In this document: piece after piece, positions 30,771 to 35,770 of the stretch
Layout of the letters: every line of letters begins with the position of its first letter
How positions within the stretch are numbered: position 1 is the stretch's first letter
Source of the DNA: Alphaproteobacteria bacterium
GTDB lineage: Bacteria > Pseudomonadota > Alphaproteobacteria > Thalassobaculales > Thalassobaculaceae
Reading direction: 5' to 3'
NCBI GenBank assembly: GCA_013203465.1
Contig: JABMNR010000047.1
Span: 1 to 44,974, forward strand
DNA: 44,974 nucleotides
Position numbers and translations under genes: made by a program
Notes under the pieces: generated by a model
Databases searched by the model: none
Told to the model about the DNA's origin: nothing
What the model saw: the letters and a program-made list of their open reading frames with translations, nothing else

Positions 30771-31994
30771 TCATCTCTCGCGATCGCCGTTACCACCGGC
30801 CAATCGGCTAAAGACCGGCGACGTCCGCAACAACGCGACAAACCGCGATCGCAATGCGCGGTCGGGTGCCGCCCGCCGGGTCATGCGCCACACCACGAAG
30901 ACCAGGAACAATATGTGCACAATCCCGATGTACATGAAGAACGCCGACACACCGAAGCGCTCCATCACCACGGCTGACAACGACGGCCCGATGATCGCGC
31001 CCAAGGCGAAGAACAGCATCAGGCCTGCGGCTATCTCAATGTACTGCCCGGGTCCGGCAAAATCGTTGGCGTGGGCGGCCGACAGGGAATAAAGCGGCAC
31101 CGCGAAGGCGCCGAACAGCAAAATGCCTAAATAAACGCCATCCACCCCGGACAAGGACAGCACCCCGCATCCGATCGTCGCCCCAATGGTCGCCACGACG
31201 ATGGTCCAGCGCCGATCGAAGCGATCGGACAGCCAGCCCAGCGGATACTGGGTGATCAGGCCAACCGCGATGCCCAGGGTCATGAACAGCGCTACCCCGT
31301 CGGCGTCCAACCCCATGCCCTGTGCATACAGCGGTCCCATCTGACGAAACGCGCCGTTGGTAAGACCCAATGTGATGCACCCAGCGCAGGCCACTGGTGA
31401 AATCGCCCACACGGCGCCGAGGTGTATGCGGGAGCTTTCTGGTGGCGGTGGACTGACCAATTTTGATAACGCCACCGGCACCACAGCCGCGCAATACATC
31501 ACCGCCATCGCGACGAAAATCGCGATGCCGCCAACGCCCAGGGCTGGGATCAGGAATTGAACTCCGGTCACCGCCGCCAGATCGACGATGCGGTAAACGC
31601 TTAGCACGCGGCCTCGGTCCGAACTTTCCGCCAAGGCGTTCAACCAACTCTCGACCACCGTGGCGGCGACTGAGAACGCTATGCCGAGGGCGAGCCGCGC
31701 GACCATCCAAACCCACGGATCGACCACGGTCATCATCGCCAACACCGCGATCGCGGCCGTGGCGGAGAACGCGGCGAACACCCGGATATGGCCGGATCGG
31801 CGGATCAGCGCCGCCGAGGACAGCGAGCCCACCAGAAACCCCATAAAAAAGGATGACCCGATCAGCCCGATGATCCACTCCGGAAATCCCTCCAACCCGG
31901 CCCGCATCGCGGTGAGGGTTCCAAGCCCGCCATTGGCACCCAACAGAGCGCCCGCGGACAGCAGGATCGGCAGCAGCATCAGGCGTGTGACCAT
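30771..31994 (-). CDS. MFS transporter, YcaD-like
   Basis: This 407-residue protein has about 12 spans in two halves, with an MFS motif A-like loop in the second half (GWLSDRFDRRWTIV). The N-terminal LGANGGLGTL, FFMGFLVGS and ESWLNALAES segments resemble the YcaD/YfkF group of exporters with unknown substrates. It lies downstream of the histidine kinase gene and about 100 bases upstream of the TAXI gene on the same strand. An inverted repeat lies in its leader. It could share a transcript with the kinase. Confidence 0.85.
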   Translation of the reverse strand: MVTRLMLLPILLSAGALLGANGGLGTLTAMRAGLEGFPEWIIGLIGSSFFMGFLVGSLSSAALIRRSGHIRVFAAFSATAAIAVLAMMTVVDPWVWMVARLALGIAFSVAATVVESWLNALAESSDRGRVLSVYRIVDLAAVTGVQFLIPALGVGGIAIFVAMAVMYCAAVVPVALSKLVSPPPPESSRIHLGAVWAISPVACAGCITLGLTNGAFRQMGPLYAQGMGLDADGVALFMTLGIAVGLITQYPLGWLSDRFDRRWTIVVATIGATIGCGVLSLSGVDGVYLGILLFGAFAVPLYSLSAAHANDFAGPGQYIEIAAGLMLFFALGAIIGPSLSAVVMERFGVSAFFMYIGIVHILFLVFVVWRMTRRAAPDRALRSRFVALLRTSPVFSRLAGGNGDRER

Positions 31995-32115: not shown

Positions 32116-33522
32116 TTACACTACCCGCGACGGTGGCAGATGGACTCGCGCTTTTGTCCCGACTCCTGGCTTACTTTCGAGTGTTAACGTCCCGCCGTGG
32201 CGTTCCACCAACCGGCGGCTCAAGGCAAGGCCAAGACCCGCGCCATCAAGGTTGGTCACGCCCTGGTTCTTTACCCGAACGAAAGGCTCCATCACACGGT
32301 CGAGATCGTCAGGCTCGATGCCGACACCCGTGTCGCGGACGGCAATCTCGACCCCCCCTTCATCGGTCGGCCGAACCGTAAGATCGACCTGTCCGCCGGG
32401 CCGGGTGAACTTCACGGCGTTGGTCAGCAGGTTGATTACCACCTGACGCAGTTTGACCACGTCGGCCAACACCCGCGGTGTCTCCAGCGCGACCGCCACC
32501 GAGAGATCGAGGCCACGCTCAAGCGCCCGGCCCGCAACCATGGTCCGGCACGACTCGATCAGATGAGCCATGTCGATCGGCTCCTCCGACAGCTCCAAGG
32601 CGCCGACCTCGGCCCGCGAGAAATCCAGGATGTCGGAGATCAAGCTGAACAGATGATTGCCGCTGTCGGCAATATTGCCGACGTATTCCTGGTATTTCGG
32701 ATGGCCCAGCGGCCCCCAAATCTCCTCCCGCATCGCATCCGCGAAGCCGATTACCGCGTTCAGGGGAGTCCGCAACTCGTGGCTGAGATTGGCCAGGCTC
32801 TCATGCTTGATCAGGTTGGCCTCATGGGCCAAGCGACGGGCCACCAACAAGTCCGCACTCAGCGCCTCATTGATCAAGCGCAGCCGGAAGGTTTCCGCCA
32901 GTGACCGCGAGGACGCCTGTCCGGCAACGACCACCAGCGCGGCATAGACCAGCCCCATGGCCGCCACGTTCAAGTGGATCGGATCGCCGATATAGGTGCT
33001 TGCCACCAGTATCGACAGCGACGGCGGCAGCACCAGAAAGCGAAACGCCGGCGGATGGGCCGCCAACGAAAAAACCGACGCCGCCATCATGCCGCCGATG
33101 GCGAACATCACCAGTCCCTGGCTCGTCAGCGTGGCGCCAAGCGGCGCGACAAGCGGCGCAAGCGCCCAAACGAGGCCGGTCGCCAGCGCCCCAACCTCGT
33201 AGCGCCGGGCCCAGCGCTTGGCCGATTGCACCGTGGGGTGGGCGCGGCGATAGGCCCACCACAACCCGAACCGGGTTACAACCACGACCGTCATCAACAG
33301 CAACCAACCGGCGAGCAGATCGCACGGAACCATCGGGTCCATCGCCGTGACAAGCAGGATCGCGATGGCGATATTGGCGAACATCGCCACCGGCGACCGG
33401 TACAACTCCTTGATTCGCTCAGCCAGCATCGCTTCGGGTGTTATGCCCTCGGCGGCGTCGTTCACGTTGGCATTCGACTCGGTAGGTTCCCGCTTGTTGG
33501 TTTTTTTCGGGTCATCACTCAT
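32116..33522 (-). CDS. Multi-span sensor histidine kinase, DivJ/PleC-like core
   Basis: This 468-residue kinase has a charged N-terminal tail (1-45), about six membrane spans (47-60, 68-84, 112-130, 137-154, 162-178, 186-202), then a HisKA domain with H-box His248 in LANLSHELRTPLNAVIGF, and a HATPase domain (N box INLLTNAVKF, G1 VRDTGVGI, G2 GAGLGLALSRRL). The segment GHPKYQEYVGNIADSG, followed by SLISDILDFSRAE, is typical of the alphaproteobacterial DivJ/PleC/HWE-neighbour group. No response regulator gene is adjacent. A perfect CtrA box lies 74 bases upstream of the ATG. The start at 33522 (MSDDPKK) is preferred over one 54 bases upstream. Confidence 0.9.
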   Translation of the reverse strand: MSDDPKKTNKREPTESNANVNDAAEGITPEAMLAERIKELYRSPVAMFANIAIAILLVTAMDPMVPCDLLAGWLLLMTVVVVTRFGLWWAYRRAHPTVQSAKRWARRYEVGALATGLVWALAPLVAPLGATLTSQGLVMFAIGGMMAASVFSLAAHPPAFRFLVLPPSLSILVASTYIGDPIHLNVAAMGLVYAALVVVAGQASSRSLAETFRLRLINEALSADLLVARRLAHEANLIKHESLANLSHELRTPLNAVIGFADAMREEIWGPLGHPKYQEYVGNIADSGNHLFSLISDILDFSRAEVGALELSEEPIDMAHLIESCRTMVAGRALERGLDLSVAVALETPRVLADVVKLRQVVINLLTNAVKFTRPGGQVDLTVRPTDEGGVEIAVRDTGVGIEPDDLDRVMEPFVRVKNQGVTNLDGAGLGLALSRRLVERHGGTLTLESKPGVGTKARVHLPPSRVV

Positions 33523-33595
33523 CAAATCCCACCGATGCCCGGTCGCGGCCGAACCATTCGATCGCCCCGTGTGCAAAATGAGAACCGCTGAATAG

Positions 33596-33610
33596 TTAAC
33601 AAACCGTTAA
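33596..33610. promoter_or_regulatory. Full-consensus CtrA binding site (TTAA-N7-TTAA)
   Basis: The segment reads TTAACAAACCGTTAA and is followed by C, matching the CtrA consensus TTAA-N7-TTAAC at every fixed position. It reads as TTAA-N7-TTAAC on the other strand too. It is between divergent genes: 74 bases from the histidine kinase ATG and about 115 bases from the flavoprotein ATG. CtrA is the cell-cycle and motility master regulator of alphaproteobacteria. Confidence 0.65.
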
Positions 33611-33724
33611 CGCCCTCCGATACCCTCGTTCGTTCTCCGGCGGCCAATGGAAACTAGCAGACAAAGAGCAAGAATCGGCGCCTACCCCTTCATCGAGCGG
33701 ATCAGGACGCGCTAAGCTGCCGGC

Positions 33725-35770
33725 ATGACCAAGAGCAAAGACCCCCTGCTTCAACCCTATCGTCTGAAGCATCTAGAGCTGAAGAACCGCATCCTGTCGA
33801 CCGCGCATGAGCCAGCCTATTCCGAGGGCGGGATGCCGACCGAGCGATACCGCCTATACCACGCGGAAAAGGCCAAGGGTGGCATTGGGCTGACGATGAT
33901 CGGCGGCTCCGCCATCGTCGACCGGGACAGCCCGCCGGCCTTCGGTAATCTGCACCTTTACGACGACCGGATCGTGCCGTGGTTCAAGCAACTTGCCGAC
34001 GCGTGTCACGCCTACGACACCAAGGTTATGTGCCAGATCACCCATCTCGGCCGCCGCACCAGCGCCACCAGCGGCGACTGGCTGCCGATCCTCTCCCCCT
34101 CGCCGATCCGCGAGGCGGCGCACCGGTCATTCCCGAAGGAAGCCGAGGATTTCGATCTCGAACGGATCACCGCCGCCTACGCTGCCGCCGCCGTACGCTG
34201 CCGGGACGGTGGTCTCGATGGCATTGAGATCGAAGCCTATGGCCATTTTCTCGACGCCTTCTGGTCGCCGCTGACCAACACGCGCGACGATGCCTATGGC
34301 GGCAGCCTGGAAAACCGCATGCGCTTCGGCATGGAGGTGATCCACGCCATCCGCCGGGCGGTCGGGGCCGACTACATCGTCGGCATCCGCATGGTCGCCG
34401 ACGAGGACCTAGCGGCCGGGTTGAGCCATGAAGAAGGCATCGAGATCGCCCGCCGCATTGCCGCCGACGGCGCGATCGACTTCATCAACGTCATCAAGGG
34501 CCATGTCGATACCGACGAAGGGTTGAGCCACGTCATCCCCGGCATGGGCACCCCTGCCGGCCCGCATTTGGCGTTGGCCAAGCAGATTCGCGAGCAAACC
34601 GGCGTCGCCACCTTCCACGCCGCCCGGATCAACGACGTTGCCACCGCCCGGCACGCCGTCGCTCAGGGCCATGTCGATCTGGTCGGCATGACCCGCGCCC
34701 ACATCGCCGACCCGCACATCGTCGCCAAGATCATGGCCGGCGAAGAGGATCGTATCCGGCCCTGCGTCGGTGCCGCCTACTGCATCGACCGCATCTACTA
34801 CGGCGACGAAGCGTTGTGTCTGCACAACCCGGCGACCGGGCGCGAGGCGTCGATCCCGCAGGTCGTCACGCGCGGCCCCGGCCCTTACCGCAAGGTGGTG
34901 ATCGTCGGCGCCGGCCCGGCCGGACTTGAAGCGGCTCGGGTGGCGGCCGAGCGGGGGCACATCGTCACGCTGTTCGAGGCCGCACCGCAGCCCGGCGGAC
35001 AGATCCGGTTGGCGGCAGCCTTGCCGCGGCGGCGCGAGATGATCGGCATCGTCGACTGGCGCGTGGCCGAATTGCAACGGCTGGATATCGAGCTGCGCTG
35101 CAACGTCTACGCCGAGGCGGAAGAGATCCTGGCCGAAAACCCGGACGTGGTGATCGTCGCCACCGGCGGCTTGCCGAACACCCGGTTCCTGGAGAGCGGC
35201 GAGGAGCTGGTGGTTACCAGCTGGGATATCCTGTCCAGCGAGGTGAAACCCGGTGAACGGGTGTTGCTGTTCGACGACAACGGCGCCCATCCCGGTCTCG
35301 CCGCCGCCGAGGCGATCGCCAACGCGGGCAGCGCCCTGGAGTTCGTGACACCGGAGCGTACGCTGGGACCCGACGTGGGCGGGGTGAACTATCCGGCCTA
35401 TTTCAAGGCCTTCGCCACGCACGACGTGCGGATCACCTTGAACAAGCGATTGCGGTCGGTGCGGCGCGACGGCAACGGATTGGTGGCCGAGCTATGGGAC
35501 GAATACGGCCGGCTGGCCGTCGAGCGGGAGATCGATCAGGTGGTGGTGGAACACGGCACCCTGCCGCTCGATGATGTCTACACGACGTTGAAGCCCGGCT
35601 CGGTCAACGGCGGTGCCGTCGACATCGCGGCCCTCATCGACATCCGCGCCCAGGAAATCGTCCGCAATTCAGACGGCGCTTATCGTCTATATCGGATCGG
35701 CGACGCCGTGCAGTCTCGCAACGTCCACGCCGCGATCTACGAAGCGGCACGGCTAACTCTGGCGCTATAA
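33725..35770 (+). CDS. NADH:flavin oxidoreductase, N-methylproline demethylase-like
   Basis: This 681-residue protein has the trimethylamine dehydrogenase/2,4-dienoyl-CoA reductase architecture: an N-terminal old-yellow-enzyme FMN barrel (1-345), an Fe-S linker (345-370), and FAD and NAD(P) domains (VVIVGAGPAGLEAARVAAERG near 395). The linker reads RPCVGAAYC...ALC, i.e. Cys347-x5-Cys353-x11-Cys365. The usual motif is Cys-x2-Cys-x3-Cys-x11-Cys, so one Cys is lost and the spacing is one residue shorter. Proteins annotated as N-methylproline (stachydrine pathway) demethylases have a similar RPCVGA-YC segment, so a role in N-methyl amine catabolism is plausible. The leader lacks a strong ribosome site. 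Confidence 0.85.
   Translation: MTKSKDPLLQPYRLKHLELKNRILSTAHEPAYSEGGMPTERYRLYHAEKAKGGIGLTMIGGSAIVDRDSPPAFGNLHLYDDRIVPWFKQLADACHAYDTKVMCQITHLGRRTSATSGDWLPILSPSPIREAAHRSFPKEAEDFDLERITAAYAAAAVRCRDGGLDGIEIEAYGHFLDAFWSPLTNTRDDAYGGSLENRMRFGMEVIHAIRRAVGADYIVGIRMVADEDLAAGLSHEEGIEIARRIAADGAIDFINVIKGHVDTDEGLSHVIPGMGTPAGPHLALAKQIREQTGVATFHAARINDVATARHAVAQGHVDLVGMTRAHIADPHIVAKIMAGEEDRIRPCVGAAYCIDRIYYGDEALCLHNPATGREASIPQVVTRGPGPYRKVVIVGAGPAGLEAARVAAERGHIVTLFEAAPQPGGQIRLAAALPRRREMIGIVDWRVAELQRLDIELRCNVYAEAEEILAENPDVVIVATGGLPNTRFLESGEELVVTSWDILSSEVKPGERVLLFDDNGAHPGLAAAEAIANAGSALEFVTPERTLGPDVGGVNYPAYFKAFATHDVRITLNKRLRSVRRDGNGLVAELWDEYGRLAVEREIDQVVVEHGTLPLDDVYTTLKPGSVNGGAVDIAALIDIRAQEIVRNSDGAYRLYRIGDAVQSRNVHAAIYEAARLTLAL

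What the first reader, a model, noticed from the sequence alone, without database searches (positions are those of the whole stretch)
33596..33610. Perfect CtrA box upstream of a DivJ/PleC-like kinase
TTAA-N7-TTAAC matches the consensus in both orientations and sits in a 200-base divergent promoter region of GC-rich DNA, where such an AT motif is unlikely by chance. The kinase core resembles the family that feeds the CtrA pathway, so this may be a feedback loop.
Basis: partly seen in the sequence, partly recalled or inferred. Interest (0 to 1): 0.55.

Follow-up and report, generated by a model that had tools for sequence, protein, structure and literature searches.

The report
Conserved CtrA box before sensor kinase
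A perfect binding site for the bacterial master regulator CtrA lies in front of a membrane sensor-kinase gene and is conserved in related species, so CtrA probably switches this kinase on; this is a new example of a known kind of control, and whether the kinase signals back to CtrA is unknown.

Summary
GTTAACAAACCGTTAAC (33595-33611) matches TTAA-N7-TTAAC on both strands, the only match in the window. The genome encodes CtrA (NCBIfam equivalog over cut-off), ChpT, a CckA-like kinase and a DivK-like regulator. An 11-bp-spaced repeat, YAAY-N6-TTAAC, lies on the kinase strand, in 7 of 8 cases 83-94 bp before the start codon, in 8 of 14 same-family orthologues; 6 of 14 lack it there. A T-first hexamer follows after 10-11 bp, which would put CtrA over the -35 region, as in activated Caulobacter promoters. 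All 14 ctrA promoters read in the family carry a similar box. CtrA-activated transcription of the kinase is likely but unproven. "DivJ/PleC-like" is weak: four other kinases of this genome score higher on the DivJ and PdhS profiles. The feedback loop is speculation here, though CtrA control of divJ/pleC is predicted in print for other Alphaproteobacteria (PMC2877005, passages). The divergent oxidoreductase gene looks like a later insertion, so the box probably serves the kinase. New member of a known kind.

The parts
33595..33611 (-). CtrA box GTTAAC-N5-GTTAAC (TTAA-N7-TTAAC on both strands); gene-strand reading GTTAACGGTTTGTTAAC, TTAA...TTAAC from -88 to -73 relative to the kinase ATG
   Evidence: similar site in 8 of 14 orthologous upstream regions, own included
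33578..33584 (-). putative -10 hexamer region (TTCTCA after N10 or TCTCAT after N11 from TTAAC); weak match to TATAAT
   Evidence: position inferred from orthologues TATACA, TATCAA, TATTCA, TAGCGT (three), TAGTGT; the sigma-70 scan found nothing in 33400-33800
32116..33522 (-). membrane sensor histidine kinase, 468 aa, six predicted long N-terminal helices (TM, my reading), HisKA and HATPase_c
   Evidence: Pfam; orthologue alignment; AlphaFold model (mean pLDDT 79.3, pTM 0.48)
33725..35770 (+). FMN/FAD oxidoreductase (OYE family) on the other side of the box; probably inserted between GFA and kinase
   Evidence: gene not there in L020-L023
35781..36260 (-). GFA-family gene, probably the ancestral upstream neighbour of the kinase
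   Evidence: like-placed in L020-L023
36274..37170 (-). TauD/TfdA-family dioxygenase gene, syntenic
30771..31994 (-). MFS transporter gene between kinase and TAXI protein; not there in L020-L023
29707..30672 (-). TAXI-type TRAP solute-binding protein gene, syntenic

Best explanation
The box is a CtrA binding site in the promoter of the minus-strand kinase gene. Phosphorylated CtrA binds as a dimer to the two half-sites 11 bp apart, over the -35 region, and helps sigma-70 polymerase start transcription about 50 nt before the kinase ATG, so the kinase is made when CtrA-P is high. Shown by computation: the site, its conservation on one strand at a near-fixed distance in part of the family, and the presence of CtrA. 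Inferred: binding, dimer, activation rather than repression, start site. Not shown: the signal sensed and the partner regulator of the kinase.
For: CtrA equivalog at 411 bits, cut-off 350. Best site on the gene strand at -83 to -94 in 7 of 8 upstream regions (own, and six of the seven orthologues in labels g3 and g12; the eighth, G022, has it at -131 from an uncertain GTG). Placed-window shuffle P 0.0000-0.0060 (250 bp) and 0.0000-0.0155 (local) for the 8; 0.34-0.96 for the other 6. An unanchored alignment of the 8 shows invariant AA and TTAAC at the box. T-first hexamer 10-11 nt after TTAAC in the 8, placing the box 5' end at about -38/-39; full sites that activate in Caulobacter have their 5' base near -35, e.g. 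-39 at ctrA P2 (PMC4287350, passages). The same type of box lies before ctrA in 14 of 14 promoters read; in G031, G001 and G027 it reads TAAACAAACCGTTAAC, one base different from the window site. 13 of 14 genomes with a strong orthologue have CtrA, against 2 of the other 22 of the family.
Against: Own -10 element is poor and the sigma-70 scan is negative. 6 of 14 orthologues lack the box at this place (two of them have an 8/9 site at -199), and all six genomes have CtrA. With placement left free the shuffle P for the 8 is 0.000-0.103, so single sites are not all striking. G002 keeps the box, yet neither CtrA (E <= 1e-80) nor ChpT was found in its assembly. Only 2 of 19 distant sensor-domain relatives outside the family have an 8/9 site. 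The bare motif is barely enriched in the genome. No expression or binding data.
Confidence: 0.8

Rival explanations
1. CtrA-kinase feedback loop: CtrA activates a DivJ/PleC-type kinase that acts on DivK (or otherwise on CckA) and so returns to CtrA activity. (An addition to the best explanation rather than an alternative to it.)
For: DivK-like regulator (78% to a recalled Caulobacter DivK), CckA-like kinase, ChpT and CtrA are all present; no regulator gene beside the kinase among the proteins scanned; DivJ and PdhS profiles hit its core; CtrA control of divJ/pleC is predicted in print for other groups (PMC2877005, passages).
Against: Core scores lower on those profiles than four other kinases of this genome; best profile hit is TorS; no evidence of a DivK interaction.
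Confidence: 0.2
2. CtrA represses rather than activates, or drives both the kinase and the divergent oxidoreductase gene from one symmetric site.
For: The box matches the consensus on both strands; one CtrA site can serve two divergent promoters (PMC6180460, passages).
Against: Box plus T-first hexamer spacing fits activation of the kinase; I see no T-first -10-like hexamer at N10-N11 on the + side (read by eye); relatives have box and kinase without the oxidoreductase.
Confidence: 0.15
3. The site belongs to another OmpR/PhoB-type regulator that also uses spaced direct repeats.
For: Six other Trans_reg_C proteins exist in the genome.
Against: The sequence is the published CtrA consensus and resembles the ctrA promoter boxes of the family; the published CenR motif is TGA-N8-TGA (PMC9275681, passages).
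Confidence: 0.08
4. Chance AT-rich match without function.
For: About 12 such places in the genome, and 15 hits against 8 control hits.
Against: Conservation in strand, distance and half-site spacing in three genus labels.
Confidence: 0.04

Closest known systems
CtrA full-site activated promoters of Caulobacter crescentus (PMC4287350, PMC11264516; passages seen)
   Same: TTAA-N7-TTAA, box near -35, single site
   Different: own -10 weak; start site not mapped; left half-site degenerate in relatives (TCAA, GCAA)
Predicted CtrA control of divJ/pleC in other Alphaproteobacteria (PMC2877005; passages seen)
   Same: CtrA site before a HisKA kinase gene in a genome with CckA-like, ChpT, CtrA and a DivK-like regulator
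   Different: this kinase is not shown to be DivJ or PleC, and its six-helix N-terminal region has close relatives only in its own bacterial family
ctrA promoters of the same bacterial family
   Same: near-identical box; TAAACAAACCGTTAAC in three of the five g2 genomes
   Different: other gene; one half-site imperfect in the sites found

Membership tests
CtrA-regulated promoter | TTAA-N7-TTAA(C) site | tested here: met
CtrA-regulated promoter | CtrA encoded in the genome | tested here: met
   NF045991 411 bits, cut-off 350; one own-genome hit over cut-off
CtrA-regulated promoter | box over the -35 region of a promoter | tested here: inconclusive
   T-first hexamer 10-11 nt after TTAAC in the 8 regions; sigma-70 scan negative; no mapped start site
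CtrA-regulated promoter | conserved among orthologues | tested here: met
   8 of 14, three genus labels; 6 of 14 not
CtrA-regulated promoter | CtrA-P binding and CtrA-dependent transcript | not testable with these tools
   needs ChIP, EMSA, reporter
DivJ/PleC/PdhS kinases | match to DivJ (NF050805) or PdhS (NF041593) equivalog over cut-off | tested here: not met
   168 and 166 bits against cut-offs 1000 and 2000, core only; these are lineage-specific full-length models
DivJ/PleC/PdhS kinases | best DivJ/PdhS-type kinase of its genome | tested here: not met
   four other kinases score higher; only four of the five other own-genome matches were scanned
DivJ/PleC/PdhS kinases | phosphotransfer with DivK | not testable with these tools
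   needs purified proteins

The most novel reading that the evidence does not exclude
In one family of Alphaproteobacteria, a six-TM kinase with a sensor region of its own has been wired under CtrA and feeds DivK or CckA, giving the CtrA pathway a lineage-specific membrane-sensing feedback arm.
Probability: 0.15. Interest if true: 0.5.

Novelty: new member of a known kind. Interest (0 to 1): 0.3.

Why it matters
It extends the predicted CtrA regulon to a membrane kinase conserved in part of one alphaproteobacterial family, and gives a testable candidate for sensory input near the CtrA pathway. If the kinase acted on DivK, it would show how CtrA circuits gain new sensory arms. As it stands it is one more likely CtrA target.

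Tried and rejected
Genome-wide motif counts: not decisive; own 15 hits against 8 control hits, and over the 36 family genomes the ratio differs by genus, with many genomes below control. ORF position of boxes: 11 of 12 outside filtered ORFs against 4 of 7 control places, so little weight.

Slips and dropped rows: read L018 and L020 on the wrong strand because their antisense frames are open; one search corrects both, and searches use the corrected strand. One search oriented loci by the first 600 bases only, so some (L018, L020) are listed on the strand as stored; synteny was read allowing for that. L104 (ctrA of G015) was misframed by my script because its locus is truncated, and was left out of the ctrA-promoter count, 14 of 15 loci read. 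In one search, L122 gave a frame problem, upstream was counted from the match start rather than from a start codon, and L132 had only about 200 bases upstream.

Other dead ends: the single genome-contig scan gave two loci, 27-28% identical in the kinase core only, not used. PDB sequence and fold searches returned histidine kinases and no assignment of the sensor region. CenR as binder was rejected on its published motif. G036 homologues L030 and L044 have one-mismatch boxes at other distances; not counted. The placement window -100 to -75 was chosen after seeing the own site; the G022 window (-143 to -118) was placed after seeing its site, and its start codon is uncertain.

Full report
Observation. 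The reported sequence is present and perfect: GTTAACAAACCGTTAAC at 33595-33611, matching TTAA-N7-TTAAC on both strands. It is the only hit in the 45-kb window, even at one mismatch for TTAA-N7-TTAA. Dinucleotide shuffles of the window gave no hit for the 9-base pattern in 100 trials. In the 4.48-Mb genome there are 12 places (15 strand hits) against 8 hits for the reversed control, so the word alone is weak evidence.

Regulator. One of seven Trans_reg_C proteins of the genome is CtrA: 411 bits on NCBIfam NF045991, cut-off 350. Its contig (C89) also carries genes that I read by eye as cheB, cheY and cheW, a cheA-like gene (NCBIfam CheA models, below cut-off) and chpT (Pfam HPTransfase over cut-off; NCBIfam ChpT models below cut-off). 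A CckA-like kinase (465 bits, below the 1000-bit cut-off of the Caulobacter model) and a DivK-like regulator (78% to a query recalled from memory) are present.

Kinase. The gene is 32116-33522 on the minus strand, 468 aa from the ATG. The model shows six long helices before the HisKA helices, which I read as TM helices, then HisKA and HATPase_c. None of the eight proteins that I scanned around it (29.7-40.2 kb) is a response regulator, so I call it an orphan. Orthologues with a strong sensor-region match (E below 1e-16) are found in 14 of 36 family genomes, own included; the 13 others are 36-45% identical over the whole protein. In a tree of the 14 the own protein groups with the four g12 ones (support 1.000; unrooted). 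In label g12 the loci L021-L023 show TauD, GFA, kinase, TAXI and a transporter gene that I read as TRAP permease, in that order; the GFA gene of L021 was missed by the ORF filter but its 3' end reads upstream. L020 shows the same genes, its GFA 3' end being read. These names rest on resemblance of the printed sequences to the window proteins; the TRAP gene was not scanned. The window has the same order with the oxidoreductase between GFA and kinase and an MFS gene between kinase and TAXI. The box therefore does not need the divergent gene and probably predates it.

Footprint. Read on the gene strand, the best CtrA-like site in 250 bp upstream is: own TTAACGGTTTGTTAAC (-88); G022 GCAACGAACCGTTAAC (-131 from an uncertain GTG); G013 TCAATAGAGCGTTAAC (-87); G002 TCAACGGACCGTTAAC (-87); G026 GCAACCAATCGTTAAC (-83); G030 and G034 TCAACCAATCCTTAAC (-84); G035 GCAACCATTCGTTAAC (-94). 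The right half TTAAC is invariant and the left half is [TG][TC]AA[CT], 11 bp upstream. With placement left free, shuffle P for these eight runs from 0.000 to 0.103 (300 shuffles). In a fixed 25-bp placement window it is 0.0000-0.0060 (250-bp shuffle) or 0.0000-0.0155 (local shuffle), against 0.34-0.96 for the other six: five g2 genomes and one g5. These values are not independent, because the eight fall into three genus labels, and picking the best site per sequence makes the anchored alignment look better. An unanchored alignment, with a longer stretch given for G022, nevertheless shows the invariant AA and TTAAC block. 10-11 nt after TTAAC lies TATACA, TATCAA, TATTCA, TAGCGT (three times) or TAGTGT; own TTCTCA or TCTCAT is the poorest. 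Counting from such a -10, the box begins at -38 or -39. Caulobacter full CtrA sites that activate have their 5' base near -35, for example -39 at ctrA P2 (PMC4287350, passages).

Controls. All 14 ctrA promoters of the family that I could read (of 15 loci) have an 8/9 site of the same type at -62 to -97 from the start of the CtrA profile match. In G031, G001 and G027 it reads TAAACAAACCGTTAAC, one base from the window box. Outside the family, 19 distant sensor-region loci in 16 genomes were found among 385 genomes searched; 2 of the 19 have an 8/9 site in 350 bp (L122 had a frame problem). CtrA is found in 13 of 14 genomes with a strong kinase orthologue and in 2 of the other 22; genome size and kinship confound this. 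Against: G002 keeps the box although neither CtrA (E <= 1e-80) nor ChpT was found there, which may be an assembly gap or a real loss. The six orthologues without the box are all in genomes with CtrA, so control of this kinase by CtrA, if real, is not universal in the family.

Is it DivJ or PleC? The core matches NCBIfam DivJ at 168 bits and PdhS at 166 bits, but TorS at 207, and 82 kinase-type families in all. Four other kinases of the genome score 184-216 (DivJ) and 185-224 (PdhS). I scanned four of the five other own-genome matches, plus a CckA/VirA-like kinase on C117, so the true number may be larger. The label is too specific. Two published notes bear on it, both seen as passages: in cluster C of PMC2877005 (Magnetospirillum, Rhodospirillum) DivJ is missing while PleC-DivK is present, and CtrA control of divJ and/or pleC is predicted in most Rhizobiales.

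Verdict. A conserved and probably functional CtrA site in the promoter of an orphan membrane kinase; activation is likely, feedback unproven. A new member of a known kind of regulation.

Noticed in passing
L083:4300-11717 (own genome contig C89): ctrA lies beside a chemotaxis cluster (cheB, cheY, cheW by eye, cheA by profile below cut-off) that ends in chpT; a 7/9 CtrA-like site stands before cheA.
   Followed up: partly
L090-L103, 300 bp upstream of ctrA: A CtrA-type site, TTAA-N7-TTTA or TTAA-N7-TTCA on the gene strand, is present before ctrA in 14 of 14 genomes read, suggesting autoregulation.
   Followed up: partly
L010:1501-1516 (own contig C138): Another perfect box stands about 87 bp before a 5TM-5TMR_LYT histidine kinase gene, itself just downstream of a kinase gene with Stimulus_sens_1, HAMP and HisKA domains (ChvG-like, a recalled label).
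   Followed up: partly
L015:1501-1516 (own contig C192): A perfect box about 150 bp before a GAF-PAS signalling protein gene.
   Followed up: no
L108 and L110 (own contig C181:23290-24018): A DivK-like regulator gene is followed directly by a receiver-containing open frame of 462 codons, possibly pleD.
   Followed up: no
window 33725-35770: OYE-family oxidoreductase with a C-terminal pyridine-nucleotide domain, nearest NCBIfam model mycofactocin OYE 2 but below its cut-off, apparently inserted into a conserved TauD-GFA-kinase-TAXI-TRAP block.
   Followed up: partly
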